Assembly (NCBI RefSeq): GCF_024298965.1
Contig: NZ_CP085193.1
Span: 3,534,001-3,598,000, forward strand
Length of the DNA: 64,000 bases
Direction: 5' to 3'
DNA from: Streptomyces rapamycinicus NRRL 5491
GTDB taxonomy: Bacteria > Actinomycetota > Actinomycetes > Streptomycetales > Streptomycetaceae
The notes under the pieces were generated by a model. The model made no database searches, was not told the origin of the DNA, and was given only the letters and a program-made list of their open reading frames with translations. A program made the translations under genes and the position numbers. Shown in pieces: positions 36,652 to 44,649 of the stretch; position 1 is the stretch's first letter, and the number at the start of each line of letters is the position of its first letter.

Positions 36652-37992
36652 ATGGTGCGCCTCGGTACCGGAATCGGCTGGCGACCGGAGATCGCCGACG
36701 ACATCGCGCGGCTGCCCGGCATCGACTGGGTGGAGGTGGTGGCGGAGAACATCTGCCCCGACCATGTGCCGGACGCGCTCCGGCGGCTGCGCGAGCGCGG
36801 GACCACGGTGGTCCCGCACGGGGTGTCGCTCGGCCTCGGGGGAGCCGAACGGCCCGACCCCGGCCGCCTCCGGGCGCTGGCCGAGCGGGCCGAGGCGCTG
36901 GGCTCGCCGCTGATCACCGAGCACATCGCGTTCGTCAGGGCCGGGGGGCCGCTGACCGCGTCACCGGTCCTCGAGGCCGGGCATCTGCTGCCGGTGCCGC
37001 GGACCCGTGACGCGCTGGACGTGCTGTGCGAGAACGTGCGCATCGCGCAGGACGCGCTGCCGGTGCCGCTCGCGGTGGAGAACATCGCGGCGCTGATCTC
37101 CTGGCCCGGCGAGGAGATGACCGAGGGCCAGTTCCTGGCCGAGCTCGTGGAGCGCACGGGGGTGCGGCTGCTCATCGACGTGGCCAATCTGCACACCAAC
37201 CACGTCAACCGGGGCGAGGACCCGGCCAAGGCGCTGGACGAGCTGCCCACGTCGGCGATCGCCTACGTCCATGTGGCGGGCGGGGTGGAACGGGACGGGG
37301 TGTGGCACGACAGCCACGCCCATCCGGTGACCCAGCCGGTGCTCGACGTGCTCGCCGAGCTGTGCGCCCGTACGACGCCGCCCGGGGTGCTGCTGGAGCG
37401 CGACGAGGACTTCCCGGCGGCCGAGGAGCTCGCGGGCGAGCTGGACGCGATCCGCGCGGTGACGGCGGCGGGGGCCGGAGCGGGAGCCGAGGACGGGGGC
37501 GGGGCCGAGGACGGGGGCGGGGCCGTCGAGGCTTCGGCGCGGGCGTCCGCCGCGCCCGGCGCTCCCGTGCCGGACGCCGTCCGGGAGCGGCTGGCGCTCG
37601 CCCAGGCCGCGCTGCTGTCCGCGCTGGTCGGCGGCACCCCACCGCCCGAGGGCTTCGACCGGCGGCGGCTGCGGGTGCAGAGCGCGGCGCTGACCGCCAA
37701 GCGGGCGTCCGTGATCGCCAAGGTGGCGCCTGAACTGCCCGAGATCCTGGGCACCGGCTACCGTCCGGCGTTCGCCCGGTACGCCGACGGCCGCGCGATG
37801 ACCGGCGGCTACCGCCGCGACGCGATGTCGTTCGCCGAACATCTGCTGGCGGACGGCCGGCCCGACGACGCGGCCGCCCGGCGCCGGCTGACGCTGTGGT
37901 GGCAGGAGCGGTCCGGGCCCGCGCCCCTGCCGTCCCATCCGGCGGCGCGGCTGGCCCGCCGGGTCCGGCTCGCGCTGAGCGGGGGGCGGTGA
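36652..37992 (+). CDS. DUF692 (MNIO) enzyme fused to a DUF2063/HvfC-like domain
   Basis: Cytoplasmic protein of 446 residues. Residues 1-268 are a DUF692 TIM barrel, the multinuclear non-heme iron family of MbnB, TglH and HvfB that oxidatively modifies cysteines in ribosomal peptides. Candidate metal ligands and conserved polar residues are visible: His56 (V-V-P-H-G-V-S-L), Glu90-His91, Glu143-Asn144, Asp176/Asn179/His181, His207, Asp220-His222-His224 and Glu249-Arg250. After an Ala/Gly linker (269-307, with an 18-bp duplication), residues 308-446 resemble the DUF2063 partner ([14 protein letters not shown]-x-x-[14 protein letters not shown]). ATG follows AGGAGGGGGAG. The Cys-tail protein gene overlaps its stop by 4 bp. 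Confidence 0.88.
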
Positions 37993-38999
37993 GCGGCATG
38001 GGCGCGATCGTGACCCTGGTCTACCTGGCGGTCGCCGTGTCGTCGGTGATGCTCATCTCCGGAACGGTCCGGGCCCGGCGCAGGGAGGTCTCGGAGCCGG
38101 TGTACGCCCGGGCACACGACCTGCTGGAGGTCGCGTTCCTGGCGGGCGGGCCGGGGCGGGTGGCGGACACCGTGATCAGCACGATGTACGCGGACGGGCG
38201 GCTGGCGATCGGCGACCCCGGCGTGGTCTCGGTACGGCAGCCGGTCGCGCGCGGCCCGGTCGAGGAGGAGCTGCTGCGGCTGTGCGCCATCTCCCCGCAC
38301 GGCGGCCTGAAGTGGCTGCGCCGGGAGCTGATGCGCAGTCCGGTGGTGCAGTCGATCGGCGACCAGCTGGCGGGGCGCGGGCTGATGGTACGGCCGGACG
38401 CCCTCCGGTTCTGGCGGGGCGTGGCGCGGACGCAGATCGGGCTGTGCGCGACGGGGGTGTTTCTGGCCGCCCTGATCAGCATCGGCTCCGTCGCCGACAG
38501 CGGGCCTCCGCTGATCTTGTTGATCGCCCCCGCGCTGTTCACCGGCTTCCTCATCGGCGGAATCTGCGCCGGTGCGGGCAAGCGCAGGCTGACCGCCACC
38601 GGGCAGCGGACGCTGGCGACGTACCGGAGGGAGTCGGGGATCGGCGTACGGCGCGCCCGGTCCGTCGGCCATCCGGCGACGGTCCCCCTGGCGGTCGTCG
38701 TCGCGCTGACCGGTGCTGCCGCCCTGACGGACGATCCGCTGCTGCGGGCCCAACTGCTGGACGCGCAAAGGGTGCCCGCCGCTTCGGGGTCGTCGACCGA
38801 CTCGGGGTCGTCGGGGCCCTCGGACTCCGGCGGCGGATCGTGGTGCGGAGGTGGAGGCGGCGGCGGAGGCGGATCCGGCTGCGGAGGCTCCTCGTGCGGC
38901 GGCTCGTCCTGCGGCGGAGGCGGCGGCGGTTCGGGCTGCGGCGGGGGCGGCGGCTGCGGTGGTGGTGGTGGGGGCGGCGGCTGCGGGGGCGGCGGCTGA
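37989..38999 (+). CDS. TIGR04222-like membrane protein with Gly/Cys-only tail
   Basis: Protein of 336 residues. An N-terminal signal-anchor (about 6-26) precedes a conserved domain with [13 protein letters not shown] and S-T-M-Y-A-D-G-R-L. Two central transmembrane helices follow (about 148-167 and 173-195). The last 52 residues are Gly, Ser, one Trp and seven Cys (286, 298, 303, 308, 317, 323, 332), ending C-G-G-G-G. GTG 37989 overlaps the MNIO stop; ATG 37998 is a second option. The tail is the obvious substrate candidate for the MNIO enzyme: thioamide/oxazolone-type or other Cys modification and copper binding are inferred from known MNIO chemistry, not shown here. Confidence 0.82.
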
Positions 39000-39001
39000 A
39001 G

Positions 39002-39375
39002 CATCGATCTGCGGCTCCGTCGCGTGGCAAGGGCTTCGCCCCAGGACCCCGGCGCTCGACGAGCCGAGTCGCCACCGCGAACACCTGCACCGGCGGGCTG
39101 ATCACGGTCGGCGCTCCCACGCGGCGGACGGCTGTGTCCAACGCCCCTGGACGGACAGCCGTGGGCGGACGCCCGCACACATCCGGGTCGTCCGGCCGGG
39201 GTCCGGGGCGGAGCCCCAGTTGAGCGAAGGGGCGGGAGGGGAGCGGCCCGCCGCGGGCGGCGCGATCCGTCGGACCCCCCTCGCGGGCCCGCACGGAGCG
39301 ATCCGCATGCGCGCGAGTCGTTCATATCGTGAAAACTGTGGCGCGGTGGTGGCCGGGTCGAGTAGAAACTCGGCC
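39002..39375. repeat. Intergenic region with dispersed hairpin element (forward copy)
   Basis: About 370 bp between the two membrane-protein genes. It holds a fragment of the GCGGCTCCGTCGCGTGG element (39008-39030), the inverted pair GGCTGTGTCCAACGCCCC / GGACAGCC near 39130-39160, and a full copy of the GGGGCGGAGCCCC hairpin element (39171-39270). No reading frame with sensible codon use is present. Confidence 0.7.
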
Positions 39376-40182
39376 ATGTTGTGGGTCCTCTTCCTGCTCG
39401 TCGCGTGGGGCGCGGCGGTCGTCAGCTGCACGCGGCTGTGCCTGGCGGCGGTGGCCGCCGCTCAGCCGATGGAGCCCGAGCCGGGGGCGGACGGGAAGGG
39501 CCTGAGCCTGTACGAGGCGGCGTTCCTGTCCGGCGGGCCGCAGCGGGTGGGGGATCTGACCCTCGTCACGATGTACCGGGAGCGGCGGCTGCTGCTCGCG
39601 CACACCGGCTGGGTCACCGTGGTGGATCCGGACGGGCGGGACGAGCTGGAGCGGGCCGTGATCAGCGCGATAGGGCCGGAGGGGCAGGCCCCGGTGCGAC
39701 CGGTGCGGGTCGCGCTCGTCACGGCCGCCCCGGTGCGGGCGCTGGGCGACCGGCTGGTGGCGGCGGGGCTCGCGGTGCCCGCCTCGGCCCGTACGAATGT
39801 GGCGGTCGCGGTGCGGCATGTGCGGGCGGCCTGCCTGCTGGTGCTGGTGACGGCGGCCGCCGCGCTGCTGCTGGTGCCGCCCGCGGACGGGCGCGGTCCG
39901 GTTGCCGCGTGGTTCGTGCTGCCGCTGCTGCTGACGGCGAGCTGTCTGCTGATCGCCCGGGTCGAGGCGCATCCGTACTCACGGTGGGCCTCCCCCGCCG
40001 GTCAGCGGCTGCTGGGCCGGATCGACGTGCCGCCGCGACGAAACCTCGCCCAACGCTCCGGCGCCGACGCGGACGGCGCTGACGACGACGGCGACCTGCT
40101 CACCGCGCTCGCCGTGCACGGCACCGCCGCCCTTCCCGACCCGGCGCTGCGCGCGGCCCTGAAGACGCATTGGGGTCATTGA
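39376..40182 (+). CDS. TIGR04222-like membrane protein paralogue without Cys tail
   Basis: Protein of 268 residues related to the gene 377 bp upstream: a signal-anchor at 1-27, then A-A-F-L-S-G-G-P-Q-R-V-G-D with V-T-M-Y-R-E-R-R-L, then two transmembrane helices. A C-terminal segment G-T-A-A-L-P-D-P-A-L-R-A-A-L corresponds to [14 protein letters not shown] in the neighbour, but the protein stops there without any Gly/Cys extension. ATG 39376 has no clear ribosome site; ATG 39307 with GGAG upstream is possible. It may be an assembly partner or a decoy of the tailed protein. Confidence 0.75.
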   Translation: MLWVLFLLVAWGAAVVSCTRLCLAAVAAAQPMEPEPGADGKGLSLYEAAFLSGGPQRVGDLTLVTMYRERRLLLAHTGWVTVVDPDGRDELERAVISAIGPEGQAPVRPVRVALVTAAPVRALGDRLVAAGLAVPASARTNVAVAVRHVRAACLLVLVTAAAALLLVPPADGRGPVAAWFVLPLLLTASCLLIARVEAHPYSRWASPAGQRLLGRIDVPPRRNLAQRSGADADGADDDGDLLTALAVHGTAALPDPALRAALKTHWGH

Positions 40183-40276: not shown

Positions 40277-42136
40277 GTGAGAGCAGCAGCGCTGTACGGC
40301 ATCCTCGGGCCGCTGTCCCTGTCGCTGGCCATGAGCGCGCTGCTCGCGGCGCCCGCCACCGGCCGCCCGCTCGCCGCGCCCACCGCGCCCACCGCCCCCA
40401 CCGCCACGATCCCCGCAACGCCCACCGCGTCCACCAGGTCCACCGCGGCCCCGGCCGGTGCGGCGGGCGCGCCCTCCGCGACCCGTTCGGCCCCCGCCGC
40501 CACCGCCGCCCCCGTCGCCCCCACCTGGACCACCTGGTCCGCCCCACCCGCCTCGGCCGCCCCGGCCGCCGCCCCGCCCGGCGACGCGGCCGCGACCCGT
40601 GGCGTGGCGTTCGCCGCCCGGCGCGCGGCACAGCGCGGTACCGCCTTCCACCGCTGCCCCCGCGCCGAGGCGCTGGCCGCCCCCATCACCTGCGGAAAGG
40701 TCTCCGTACCGCTCGACTACGCCCATCCCCGCGGCAAGCACATCTCCCTCACCGTCAGCCGGATCCGGGCCACCGGCCCCAAGGCCCGGCGTCAGGGCGC
40801 GCTGATCTACAACCCCGGCGGGCCGGGCGCCTCCAGCATGGCGTTTCCCGAGTACGCGGCCGAGGACGCCTTCCGCCGGGTGGCCGCCGCCTACGACTTC
40901 GTCGGCTACGCCCCACGGGGTGTGGGCCGCTCCGCCCCGCTGTCCTGCCAGCGGCCGTCGGCCTACGCCAAGGCGCCGACCAGCTCCCCGCCCCACCCCA
41001 CCGCCGCCTTCAAACGGCGGCTGGTGGCGCGGGCGCGCGCCTACGTACGGGGCTGTGTGCGCCGCTCGGGCCGCGCGCTCGCGCACTACACCACGCTGAA
41101 CAACGCCCGCGACCTGGAAGTGCTGCGCGCCGCGCTGGGCCAGCGGCGGCTCACCTTCGTCGGCGCCTCGTACGGCACGTACTACGGGGCCGTCTACGCC
41201 ACGCTCTTCCCGGGGCGGGTGCGCCGGATGGTCTTCGACAGCGTGGTCAACCCAGCCCCCGGGCGGATCTGGTACCGCGACAACCTCGACCAGTCGCTGG
41301 CCTTCGAGCGGCGCTGGCGGGACTGGCGCCGCTGGGTCGCCCGGCACCACGCCGTCTACCACCTGGGCGCCACCGCGGACCGGGTGCTCGCCTCGTACCA
41401 CACGGCGCGGCGCCGGCTGGCGCGGAAGCCGGCGGGCGGGGTCGTCGGCACCGCGCAACTCCAGAGCGCGTTCCTGAGGACCGGCTACAACGACGCCTAC
41501 TGGGATCCTGCCGCCCGGGCGCTGGCCGCGTATCTGCGCGGCGACCCCGAGCCGCTGGCCGAACTCGCCGCGCCCGATCCGGCGGAGGCAGCCGACGACG
41601 AGAACGGCAACGCCGTCTACACCGCCGTGGAGTGCAACGACGCGCCCTGGCCGCGCGCCTGGGCCACCTGGGACCGCGACAACACCGCCCTCGCCCGCCG
41701 CGCGCCCTTCGAGACCTGGGACAACGTGGCGATGAACCTGCCGTGCGCCTTCTGGCCGCTGAAGCCCGGCCGCCCCCTCGACGTGGGGAACCTGGAGGCC
41801 GTGGGCCCCCGCCCCCGGACCGGGCGCGTCGCGCTGCCGCCGGTGCTGCTGCTGTCAGCGGAGCGGGACGCGGCCACGCCGTACACGGGGGCGAAGGAGC
41901 TGTGGCACCGGCTGCCCGGCTCCTCGCTGGTGACCGAGCGGAAGGCGGGGACGCATGGTCTGTGGGGCGGTCCGAACGACTGCGTCAACCGCCATGTGGA
42001 CACCTATCTGCTGACCGGGAAGACCCCGGGCCGGTCCGCCTTCTGCGCCCCGCGCCCGGAGCCCGCACCGCTGCCGGAACCGGCCCCGCTGCCCGAATCG
42101 GGCAAGCAACCGGCCGCGATCCCGGGGACGCCGTAG
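40277..42136 (+). CDS. Secreted alpha/beta-hydrolase, tripeptidyl aminopeptidase-like
   Basis: Exported serine peptidase-type protein of 619 residues. A signal peptide (about 1-29) is followed by an Ala/Pro/Thr-rich stretch of about 80 residues. The alpha/beta-hydrolase core has the oxyanion motif Y-N-P-G-G-P-G-A-S, the nucleophile Ser in G-A-S-Y-G-T-Y-Y-G, the Asp in S-A-E-R-D-A-A-T-P and the His in K-A-G-T-H-G-L-W. The TAP-type C-terminal domain is present, as in Streptomyces SlpD/SlpE and Tap. The start GTG 40277 follows GAAGGGACGG. Its location after the Cys-tail locus is suggestive, but a processing role is unsupported. Confidence 0.88.
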   Translation: MRAAALYGILGPLSLSLAMSALLAAPATGRPLAAPTAPTAPTATIPATPTASTRSTAAPAGAAGAPSATRSAPAATAAPVAPTWTTWSAPPASAAPAAAPPGDAAATRGVAFAARRAAQRGTAFHRCPRAEALAAPITCGKVSVPLDYAHPRGKHISLTVSRIRATGPKARRQGALIYNPGGPGASSMAFPEYAAEDAFRRVAAAYDFVGYAPRGVGRSAPLSCQRPSAYAKAPTSSPPHPTAAFKRRLVARARAYVRGCVRRSGRALAHYTTLNNARDLEVLRAALGQRRLTFVGASYGTYYGAVYATLFPGRVRRMVFDSVVNPAPGRIWYRDNLDQSLAFERRWRDWRRWVARHHAVYHLGATADRVLASYHTARRRLARKPAGGVVGTAQLQSAFLRTGYNDAYWDPAARALAAYLRGDPEPLAELAAPDPAEAADDENGNAVYTAVECNDAPWPRAWATWDRDNTALARRAPFETWDNVAMNLPCAFWPLKPGRPLDVGNLEAVGPRPRTGRVALPPVLLLSAERDAATPYTGAKELWHRLPGSSLVTERKAGTHGLWGGPNDCVNRHVDTYLLTGKTPGRSAFCAPRPEPAPLPEPAPLPESGKQPAAIPGTP

Positions 42137-42392: not shown

Positions 42393-43109
42393 TCAGGCCA
42401 GGCCGGCGACGAGTTCGGAGACCGCCCTGCGCCGGCCGGTGTAGAACGGCACTTCCTCGCGTACGTGCCGGCGCGCCTCGGAGCCCCGCAGATGGCGCAT
42501 CAGGTCGACGATCCGGTGCAGCTCGTCCGCCTCGAAGGCCAGGATCCACTCGTAGTCGCCGAGCGAGAAGGACGCCACCGTGTTGGCGCGCACGTCGGGG
42601 TAGCCGCGGGCCATCTTGCCGTGGTCCGCGAGCATCCTGCGGCGGTCCTCGTCGGGCAGCAGGTACCAGTCGTAGGAGCGGACGAACGGGTACACGCTCA
42701 CGTACTCGCGCGCGTTCTCGTCCGCGAGGAACGCCGGGATGTGGGACTTGTTGAACTCGGCCGGGCGGTGCAGCGCCATGTTGGACCACACCGGCTCCAG
42801 GTGCCGTCCCAGCCGGGTGCGGCGGAAGAGGTTGTACGCCTCCTGGAGGGCGTCGGAGGTCTCCGAGTGCCACCAGATCATGACGTCCGCGTCGGCGCGC
42901 AGCCCGGACACGTCGTAGGTGCCGCGCACGGTGACGTCCTTGGCGGCGAGCTGGGAGAAGAGCTCCTCGACCTCGTCGGCGTAGCCGGTGCGGTCCTCCG
43001 GCAGCACATCGCGCAGCCGGAACACCGACCACAGGGTGTAGCGGATGACCTCGTTGAGGTCCTTGGCCTTCTTACCGGCGTTGGGAGTCTTCTCAGGTGC
43101 AGCAGTCAT
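42393..43109 (-). CDS. hemQ: Coproheme decarboxylase HemQ
   Basis: Last enzyme of the coproporphyrin-dependent heme pathway of Gram-positive bacteria; it oxidatively decarboxylates coproheme III to heme b. The 238-residue protein has the chlorite-dismutase-like fold with W-W-H-S-E-T, the Tyr-bearing [12 protein letters not shown] segment, proximal His region L-A-D-H-G-K-M-A-R and [14 protein letters not shown]. It starts 5 bp after hemG on the same strand and is clearly cotranscribed with it. Confidence 0.95.
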
Positions 43110-43113
43110 GGCC

Positions 43114-44649
43114 CTATTCTCGCTCTCCGGCTCCGGCGCCCGGCTCCAGGGGGCCCGCCAGGGCGCCCAGCAGCTCATCGGCCGCCTTACGGGCGCTGCC
43201 GACGCACGCGGGGATGCCCACCCCGTCGTAGAGGGCGCCGCACACCGCAAGCCCCGGCACCTTGGCGACCTCGGCGCGGATGCGGGCGACCCGGTCGAGA
43301 TGGCCCACCGGGTACTGGGGCAGTCCGCCGTCCCAGCGGTCCACGCGGCTCGCGACGGGCTTCGCCGCCAGGCCGACGGCCTCACCGAGATCGCCGAGCG
43401 ACATCCTTACCAGATCGGCGTCGTCCCGCTTCAGATCCGCCTCGTCGTCAAACCGCCCGATCGAGGTACGCAGCACGAAGAGATCGGGACCGGCGTCGCG
43501 CAGCCAGCCCCACTTGCGGCTGGAGAACGTGGCCGCCTTGATCGTCCGGCCGTCGACCGGCGGCACCAGGAAGCCGCTGCCCTCGGCGAGCGAGACCATA
43601 TCGGTGCGCCGGAAGGCCATGGTGATCAGCGCCATCGAGGCGTAGTCCACGGTGGCCAGCTCGGCGGAGGCGGCCGGGGCCCCGGCGGCCAGCAGCCGCG
43701 CGGCGGCGGGCGCGGGCACCGCCAGCACCACGGCGTCGGCCGCCACCACCGGCGGGCCGTCCGCACCGTCCACGCCGTTCGTGCCGTCCGTACCCTTCGC
43801 GCCGCCCGTACCGCCCGTACCGCCCGCACCGCCCGCGCCGTCCACCACGACCGTCCAGCCGTCGGCCGTGCGCCGCAGCTCCCGTACCGGCGCCCCGGTG
43901 CGGATCTCGCCGCCCGCGGCCCGTACGGCGTCGGCGACCGCGAGCGGCAGCCGCCCGATCCCGCCGTCGATGCCCATGAACACCGGGCCGTCCTGCCGCC
44001 GCGCGGAGCGCTCGGCCAGCTCCCGGACGCCTTCGGTCAGCGGGCGGCCGGATTGCGCCACCTCGAAGAGGGTGGGGACCGACGCGCGCATCGAGGTGCG
44101 GTACACATCGCCCGCGTACACCCCGCCCAACAGCGGTTCCACCAGCCGGTCCACGACCTCGCGGCCGAGCCGCTCCGCCAGATACCCGCCGAGCGCCACG
44201 TCCTCGCCCACCGGTGTGGGCGGCAGCTCGCGGTCGCGGGCGATCCTGGCCAGTCCCTCCTCCGAGATCACGCCGGACGCGGCCAGCGGCTCCAGATCGC
44301 CGGGGACGCCCATCACATGTCCCTTGGGCATCGGGCGCAGCCCGCCGCGCGTCCAGAGGGAGGCGGTCGCGGTCGCGGGCGGCTGCAGCCGGTCGCCGAG
44401 GCCCACGGCGCGCGCCAGCTCGACCGCCTCCGGGCGGCGGGCGAGCATCGACTCGGCGCCCAGGTCGACCGGTACGCCCTCGATCTCGCCCGAGCACAGC
44501 TTGCCGCCGAGCCGCCCCGACGCCTCCAGGACCGTCACCCGCGCCCCGCCGTCCAGCAGCCGGTGGGCCGCCGCGAGGCCCGCGATTCCGCCGCCGATGA
44601 CCACGACATGGCCGGTGCGCCCCGCCCCCGGAGTGTTCGCCGCTCTCAT
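43114..44649 (-). CDS. hemG: Coproporphyrinogen III / protoporphyrinogen oxidase
   Basis: FAD-dependent oxidase making the aromatic porphyrin before iron insertion; in actinobacteria it acts on coproporphyrinogen III (also called HemY or CgoX). The 511-residue protein has the FAD motif [42 protein letters not shown] and a C-terminal [11 protein letters not shown]. Within the substrate-domain region is an inserted collagen-like run of Gly-X-X triplets (about residues 270-297). Its ATG overlaps the pobR stop by 4 bp. Confidence 0.93.
43756..43842. repeat. 9-bp repeats encoding collagen-like Gly-X-X run in hemG
   Basis: About nine units of CCGCCCGTA/CCGTCCGCA type (minus-strand GGxACGGGC) encode [18 protein letters not shown] triplets. 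The run preserves frame and inserts about 28 residues. Confidence 0.85.

What the first reader, a model, noticed from the sequence alone, without database searches (positions are those of the whole stretch)
36652..40182. MNIO enzyme coupled to a Gly/Cys-tailed membrane protein: candidate RiPP-like or metal-handling system
A DUF692 protein overlaps by 4 bp a membrane protein whose last 52 residues are Gly, Ser, one Trp and seven Cys. Known DUF692 enzymes (MbnB, TglH, HvfB-type) act on cysteines in short peptide substrates. Here the presumed substrate would be the cytosolic or external tail of an intact membrane protein, not a released leader peptide. The pair could make a membrane-tethered array of modified cysteines that binds copper or another soft metal. 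TIGR04222-like proteins with low-complexity tails have, as far as I remember, been noted near DUF692 genes, but no product is known to me.
Basis: partly seen in the sequence, partly recalled or inferred. Interest (0 to 1): 0.85.

Follow-up and report, generated by a model that had tools for sequence, protein, structure and literature searches.

The report
Membrane-bound cysteine tail with modifying enzyme
A Streptomyces gene pair encodes an iron enzyme and a membrane protein whose glycine-cysteine tail is probably what the enzyme modifies; comparison with relatives suggests that the tail is a portable, membrane-tethered module that stays inside the cell.

Summary
The pairing is in print (PMC12452194, 2025), which proposes such tails as MNIO substrates and predicts them periplasmic. 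My survey adds: (1) this MNIO carries a C-terminal domain that in other actinomycete families is a separate gene beside MNIO; its best, though weak, structural matches are the MNIO partners TglI and MbnC, so enzyme and partner look fused. (2) Gly/Ser-rich TIGR04222 tails have at least 3 Cys in 53 of 54 cases beside an MNIO, 9 of 19 elsewhere. (3) Some MNIOs neighbour the same kind of tail on a single-helix peptide or another protein, so the tail, not TIGR04222, seems to be the coupled element. (4) Charges beside the membrane helices favour a cytosolic tail, though the window's protein has a borderline fourth segment. Against strict coupling, 30 of 95 MNIO loci show no Cys tail nearby, 17 of them one Streptomyces clade. 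The chemistry and a copper or soft-metal role are inference.

The parts
36652..37992 (+). MNIO (DUF692) enzyme with a C-terminal partner-like domain, 446 aa
   Evidence: PF05114 1.7e-79; Shine-Dalgarno-like AGGAGGGGG just before ATG 36652 (by eye)
36667..37461 (+). MNIO domain (residues 6-270)
   Evidence: Pfam match 6-270; H56 E143 D176 N179 H207 D220 H222 E249 D251 in 95 of 95 aligned loci, H91 in 94 of 95
37549..37989 (+). C-terminal all-helical domain (residues 300-446), probably a fused MNIO partner of the TglI/MbnC/DUF2063 kind
37989..37992 (+). 4-bp gene overlap GTGA
37989..38999 (+). Protein A: TIGR04222 membrane protein with Gly/Ser/Cys tail, 336 aa
   Evidence: TIGR04222 122.8 bits; AlphaFold model pLDDT 78.9
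37995..38081 (+). membrane helix 1 of A (residues 3-31), predicted N-out/C-in
   Evidence: model helix H3-31; Arg-rich after the helix
38121..38378 (+). middle domain of A (residues 45-130), predicted cytosolic
   Evidence: mixed alpha/beta, pLDDT block means 87-98; positive flanks
38394..38486 (+). membrane helix 2 of A (residues 136-166)
38511..38576 (+). membrane helix 3 of A (residues 175-196)
38841..38996 (+). Gly/Ser/Cys tail, last 52 residues (G38 C7 S6 W1), beginning WCG
   Evidence: pLDDT mostly under 50
39376..40182 (+). Protein B: second TIGR04222 protein, 268 aa, no tail
   Evidence: TIGR04222 143.1 bits

Best explanation
A membrane-tethered protein-modification module. Protein A sits in the cytoplasmic membrane by three helices, N-terminus out, with its middle domain and Gly/Ser/Cys tail in the cytosol (inferred from charges and model). 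The MNIO, with a partner-like domain in the same chain (partner identity rests on gene linkage and a predicted fold), holds the flexible tail and oxidises several of its Cys, which mostly precede Gly or Ser (substrate status inferred from linkage and carrier swaps; nothing measured). By analogy with the MNIO products called captophorins or bufferins, the likeliest product is a row of 5-thiooxazoles or a similar heterocycle (inference), which would bind copper or another soft metal at the inner face of the membrane (inference). No exporter, and outside Streptomyces no peptidase-like gene, recurs among the neighbour clusters I tested, so the product probably stays attached (inference). Protein B, a paralog without tail, may be a scaffold or subunit (weak inference).
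For: Linkage: of 394 class genomes, 78 hold both families, 14 MNIO only, 24 TIGR04222 only (23.8 expected with both, not corrected for ancestry); in the wider phylum sample 9 of the 10 genomes with TIGR04222 over the cut-off, of 246 searched, also hold an MNIO. Cys with MNIO: among Gly/Ser-rich tails 53 of 54 MNIO-adjacent against 9 of 19 others have at least 3 Cys, p=1.4e-6, at like G+C (72.4 and 72.1%). Carriers: of 95 MNIO loci, 54 have a Cys-tailed TIGR04222 protein, 9 a single-helix peptide with such a tail, 2 another protein with such a tail (the last two labels assigned by hand). The partner-like domain is found in 53 of 54, 8 of 9 and 2 of 2 of these. Its fold: TglI and MbnC are the top two of 211 aligned chains; 9 of 70 relatives match DUF2063, best E 7e-4. 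Topology: K+R after helix 1 exceeds K+R before it in 47 of 47 parsed Cys-tailed proteins (of 55), the reverse at helix 2 in 41 of 47, as helix 1 at helix 3 in 42 of 47; the nine single-helix peptides have 4-7 K/R in the 20 residues after the helix window and 0-1 before it. Model: no fourth membrane-length helix in A. Enzyme: ligand-type residues and D251 kept.
Confidence: 0.58

Rival explanations
1. The tail is modified in the cytosol and then moved across the membrane (the published topology): A is a membrane-anchored relative of bufferins with a periplasm-side tail.
For: PMC12452194 predicts periplasmic tails from AlphaFold2 models and topology; the last hydrophobic segment of the window's A scores 1.75, and 10 of 47 parsed proteins have a fourth window of 1.5 or more.
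Against: No such window in 37 of 47 parsed; short helices only in the window model (H234-241, H250-260); the 40 residues after helix 3 are positive, mean net +4.8; the nine single-helix carriers have the Arg-rich side towards the tail.
Confidence: 0.2
2. The tail is an unmodified Cys-rich metal or redox sponge; the MNIO acts on another substrate and is only a neighbour.
For: 30 of 95 MNIO loci show no Cys tail nearby, 17 of them one Streptomyces clade with intact ligands; Cys-rich tails could bind metal unaided (general knowledge).
Against: Cys content follows MNIO adjacency; different carriers beside MNIO share the tail; of 9 distant Gly/Ser tails with at least 3 Cys, 7 are in genomes that hold an MNIO.
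Confidence: 0.2
3. A is a RiPP precursor in the strict sense: the modified tail is cut off and released as a small metallophore or antibiotic.
For: Characterised MNIOs work in RiPP pathways (PMC12452194; PMC12668002 abstract). In Streptomyces a TAP-like (tripeptidyl-aminopeptidase-like) hydrolase recurs just downstream, in 10 of the 63 loci examined and in the window.
Against: That hydrolase cluster is confined to Streptomyces loci; the other nine clusters tested are housekeeping or unknown families, none an exporter. Three further clusters of 6-8 genes and the single genes were not identified, and no cleavage motif was looked for.
Confidence: 0.12
4. The tail is neutral low-complexity drift: Gly codons (GGY) turning into Cys codons (TGY) without function.
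For: Length and spacing vary (3-10 Cys per tail in 55 tails, spacings mostly 4-8).
Against: Gly/Ser-rich tails away from MNIO, in regions of like G+C (72.1 against 72.4%), carry fewer Cys (mean 2.2 against 5.2 in the last 60 residues); W-C is kept in 36 of 40 homologs.
Confidence: 0.05

Closest known systems
TIGR04222-MNIO loci of PMC12452194 (Microb Genom 2025)
   Same: Same families, same pairing, same proposal that Cys-rich C-terminal tails are MNIO substrates; TIGR04222 following MNIO noted in over 10% of cases; partners called PME-type 2.
   Different: In what I read (abstract passages, further passages, sections 16-19) no MNIO-partner fusion and no change of carrier is described, and the tail is called periplasmic. 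Its supplements were not read.
Bufferins / captophorins (PMC12452194, PMC12668002)
   Same: MNIO plus DUF2063-type partner acting on many Cys; copper role proposed there.
   Different: Precursors are peptides, Sec-exported for bufferins, with PME-type 1 partners that include an RRE; here the candidate substrate is a resident membrane protein and the partner-like domain is short and fused.
TglHI (3-thiaglutamate) and MbnBC (methanobactin)
   Same: MNIO plus partner; the fused domain ranks TglI and MbnC first.
   Different: Peptide substrates, separate partner chains, different chemistry (recalled).

Membership tests
MNIO / DUF692 (PF05114) | PF05114 match over the cut-off | tested here: met
   267.2 bits against 25
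MNIO / DUF692 (PF05114) | conserved His/Asp/Glu metal ligands and catalytic Asp | tested here: met
   nine of ten positions in 95 of 95 loci, H91 in 94 of 95. That these are the ligands is recalled from the family; D251 as FonB Asp249 is inferred from the ERD motif.
MNIO / DUF692 (PF05114) | iron content and oxidation of a peptide substrate | not testable with these tools
   needs purified enzyme
BufB or HvfB equivalogs | NCBIfam equivalog cut-off | tested here: not met
   MNIO_BufB 182.1 bits against 310; HvfB 146.7 against 360
TIGR04222 near_uncomplex | NCBIfam cut-off | tested here: met
   122.8 (A) and 143.1 (B) bits against 43
MNIO partner proteins (DUF2063 / PME-type 2) | DUF2063-like helical fold or signature | tested here: inconclusive
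   [not shown]
MNIO partner proteins (DUF2063 / PME-type 2) | encoded with MNIO | tested here: met
   fused or separate in 88 of 95 MNIO loci; 5 of the 7 misses lie on one separate MNIO branch
RiPP precursor | core peptide modified, then cut from a leader | not testable with these tools
   no chemistry here; a TAP-like hydrolase recurs downstream in Streptomyces only
Bufferin precursor | N-terminal Sec signal peptide before the Cys region | tested here: inconclusive
   three membrane helices with N-out/C-in charges; no signal-peptide predictor was run

The most novel reading that the evidence does not exclude
These MNIOs do not make peptides at all. They maintain resident proteins: a portable Gly/Ser/Cys tail, appended to at least three different carriers (three-helix TIGR04222, a single helix, a soluble-looking protein), is oxidised in place on the cytosolic face of the membrane by an enzyme with its partner, here as one chain, and works as a fixed metal-binding surface.
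Probability: 0.4. Interest if true: 0.8.

Novelty: new variant of a known kind. Interest (0 to 1): 0.55.

Why it matters
MNIOs are a large enzyme family known from released or exported peptides. If this one modifies a tail that never leaves the membrane, the family also works on resident proteins, and the module (one enzyme-partner chain plus one substrate) is a compact system in which to study substrate choice without leader or export. The predicted cytosolic side contradicts the one published prediction that I found and can be settled by a reporter experiment. The single-helix carriers of 83-119 residues are small enough to express and analyse whole.

Tried and rejected

Rows dropped: 9 PF05114 rows under 91.9 bits were left out and G092 was added (101 sites used); only rows of 43 bits or more were used (130). 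TIGR04222 counts are lower bounds, since at most 7 candidates a genome were scored there (11). 12 of 125 TIGR04222 proteins were dropped before the tail count for the reasons printed; 8 of 55 Cys-tailed proteins did not parse into three helices; 2 of 95 MNIO domains were left out of the tree. 'Adjacent' means within 3 kb of an MNIO match; a TIGR04222 protein counts if it lies in the fetched region on the MNIO's strand. One search had taken an antisense frame for L148; one search repeats the count without that error.

Full report
What is there. The finding is exact. An MNIO (DUF692) gene, 36652-37992, overlaps by 4 bp a TIGR04222 gene (protein A, 37989-38999), and a second TIGR04222 gene (protein B, 39376-40182) follows. 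PF05114 matches the enzyme at 1.7e-79 over residues 6-270; TIGR04222 matches A and B at 122.8 and 143.1 bits. The last 52 residues of A are G38 C7 S6 W1. The genome has one PF05114 match and three TIGR04222 matches, two of them here. The nearest named homologs of A are from Streptomyces such as S. asiaticus, S. javensis and S. violaceusniger, so the host is a Streptomyces.

What is already known. PMC12452194 (abstract passages, further passages and sections 16-19 read) reports the TIGR04222-MNIO association, mostly in Actinomycetota, with TIGR04222 after MNIO in more than 10% of cases. It proposes that a subset of the tails are MNIO substrates and predicts them to be periplasmic; partners are called PME-type 2. 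It also lists a 'peptidyl-tRNA hydrolase - MNIO - TIGR04222' organisation. TIGR04222 appears in one other paper of the library, seen in the listing only.

Survey. In 394 genomes of the class, PF05114 occurs in 94 and TIGR04222 above its cut-off in 106. With the rows I used, 78 genomes hold both, 14 MNIO only, 24 TIGR04222 only, where 23.8 would be expected together by chance (Fisher 8e-46, not corrected for ancestry). In 246 genomes drawn from the phylum, 10 have TIGR04222 over the cut-off, and 9 of these have an MNIO; 14 have an MNIO in all. Of 130 TIGR04222 hits in the class, 79 lie within 6 kb of an MNIO. I fetched 101 MNIO regions and 50 regions of other TIGR04222 genes.

Cys follow MNIO. 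Of 125 TIGR04222 proteins found in these regions, 113 were usable. At least 3 Cys in the last 60 residues: 53 of 74 within 3 kb of an MNIO, 11 of 39 elsewhere (p=1.9e-5). Among Gly/Ser-rich tails: 53 of 54 against 9 of 19 (p=1.4e-6). Of the 11, 8 are in genomes with an MNIO elsewhere; of the other three, G312 lies at a contig edge, so its neighbour is unknown, and two (G408, G475) do not look like Gly/Ser tails. Several proteins away from MNIO have Gly-rich tails that end in GGGGD with few or no Cys, and mean G+C of the two sets of regions is alike, 72.4 and 72.1% (100 and 50 regions), which makes Gly-codon drift an unlikely cause. The 55 adjacent Cys-tailed proteins have 305 tail Cys, 3-10 each; the next residue is Gly in 244 and Ser in 42. 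A W-C-[GAS] motif marks the MNIO-first type, which is the Streptomyces one (14 of 16), and is absent from the TIGR04222-first type (0 of 39).

The tail changes carriers. Of 95 MNIO loci, 54 have a Cys-tailed TIGR04222 protein; 9 a peptide of 83-119 residues (starts chosen by eye) made of one membrane helix, an Arg-rich stretch and a Gly/Ser/Cys tail with some His; 2 a soluble-looking protein of about 450 residues ending in such a tail (one, L175, tested: no Pfam match); 15 only a TIGR04222 protein without Cys tail; 15 none seen (the labels of the 9 and the 2 were assigned by hand). On a tree of 93 MNIO domains the single-helix label needs three changes and the soluble-looking one a single change. 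This points to the tail as the element that goes with the enzyme.

Which side of the membrane. In 47 Cys-tailed proteins that parse into three helices (of 55), mean K+R in 15 residues before/after helix 1 is 0.26/3.21 (47 of 47 in this direction), helix 2 3.13/0.57 (41 of 47), helix 3 0.81/3.64 (42 of 47). This gives N-out, middle domain in, tail in. The same pattern holds in tail-less adjacent proteins (18 parsed) and in others (13 parsed), so it is a family trait. A fourth hydrophobic window of 1.5 or more exists in 10 of 47; the window's A is one, with 1.75, but its model shows only short helices there, 234-241 and 250-260. In the nine single-helix carriers 4-7 K/R follow the helix window and 0-1 precede it; two have a Lys inside the window. 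The published periplasmic prediction is therefore doubtful for most members, though not excluded for those with a fourth segment, the window's included.

Exceptions. Seventeen Streptomyces MNIO loci in one clade (support 100/98) show no local Cys tail: 14 keep only a TIGR04222 protein without tail, 3 show none, one of them (L161) cut by a contig end. Their ligands are kept in 17 of 17. In three that I looked at (L154, L159, L164), genes that look by eye like PTH2, DUF4142 and TAP-like hydrolase flank the module in part; these families were identified in other loci. The clade is nested among Streptomyces with Cys tails, so the tail was probably lost once there or moved elsewhere in the genome. 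Seven distant Gly/Ser/Cys tails in MNIO-holding genomes would need modification in trans.

Context. From 63 loci with Cys tails I took up to two genes on each side by my own gene calling (229 genes) and grouped them. The ten clusters identified are housekeeping or unknown families: pheS/pheT with argC/argJ-type genes; PEPCK with an undecaprenyl-diphosphate-synthase family gene; in Streptomyces a chlorite dismutase (HemQ-type) family gene, TAP-like hydrolase, PTH2 and DUF4142. No exporter is among them; the TAP-like hydrolase, also next to the window's module, could be a peptidase. Three more clusters of 6-8 genes and the single genes were not identified. This looks more like a chromosomally settled cell function than a natural-product cluster (inference).

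Most likely working. The enzyme docks on the flexible tail of the membrane protein and oxidises Cys in -C-G/S- settings. 5-Thiooxazole is the best guess because related MNIO-partner systems make it and are tied to copper (PMC12668002, abstract and sections 6 and 13), though those have PME-type 1 partners. Shown here: linkage, Cys contrast, carrier swap, conserved fused domain. Inferred: modification, its chemistry, partner function, side of the membrane, metal role.

Verdict. Real; a member of an association already described, new in its architecture and in the predicted side of the membrane. Interest 0.55.

Noticed in passing
L162, L167, L168, L177, L183, L185, L186, L190, L192: Peptides of 83-119 aa beside MNIO with one membrane helix, an Arg-rich stretch and a Gly/Ser/Cys tail with some His, outside TIGR04222; possibly the published adjamnio-V group, which could not be checked.
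   Followed up: partly
L166 and L175: MNIO-adjacent proteins of about 450 aa that end in the same kind of Cys tail; no Pfam match for L175, soluble-looking by eye.
   Followed up: partly
17 Streptomyces loci, e.g. L154, L159, L164: MNIO with the fused domain but no local Cys tail; a TIGR04222 protein without tail is kept in 14.
   Followed up: partly
L230 (own genome C1:8028067): A third TIGR04222 protein with a Gly/His-rich tail and one Cys near the end; single-Cys tails also in L217 and L242.
   Followed up: no
L228 (G277): A TIGR04222 Cys tail runs in frame into a piece resembling the partner-like domain; a fusion or a frame error.
   Followed up: no
[not shown]
   Followed up: no
window 40277-42136 (+): Gene downstream of B falls in a cluster of TAP-like (tripeptidyl-aminopeptidase-like) hydrolases found beside the module in 10 Streptomyces loci; a candidate peptidase for the tail.
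   Followed up: partly
window 42393-44649 (-): Read by eye as HemQ-like and protoporphyrinogen-oxidase-like genes; a chlorite dismutase (HemQ-type) family gene recurs near the module in 11 loci.
   Followed up: partly
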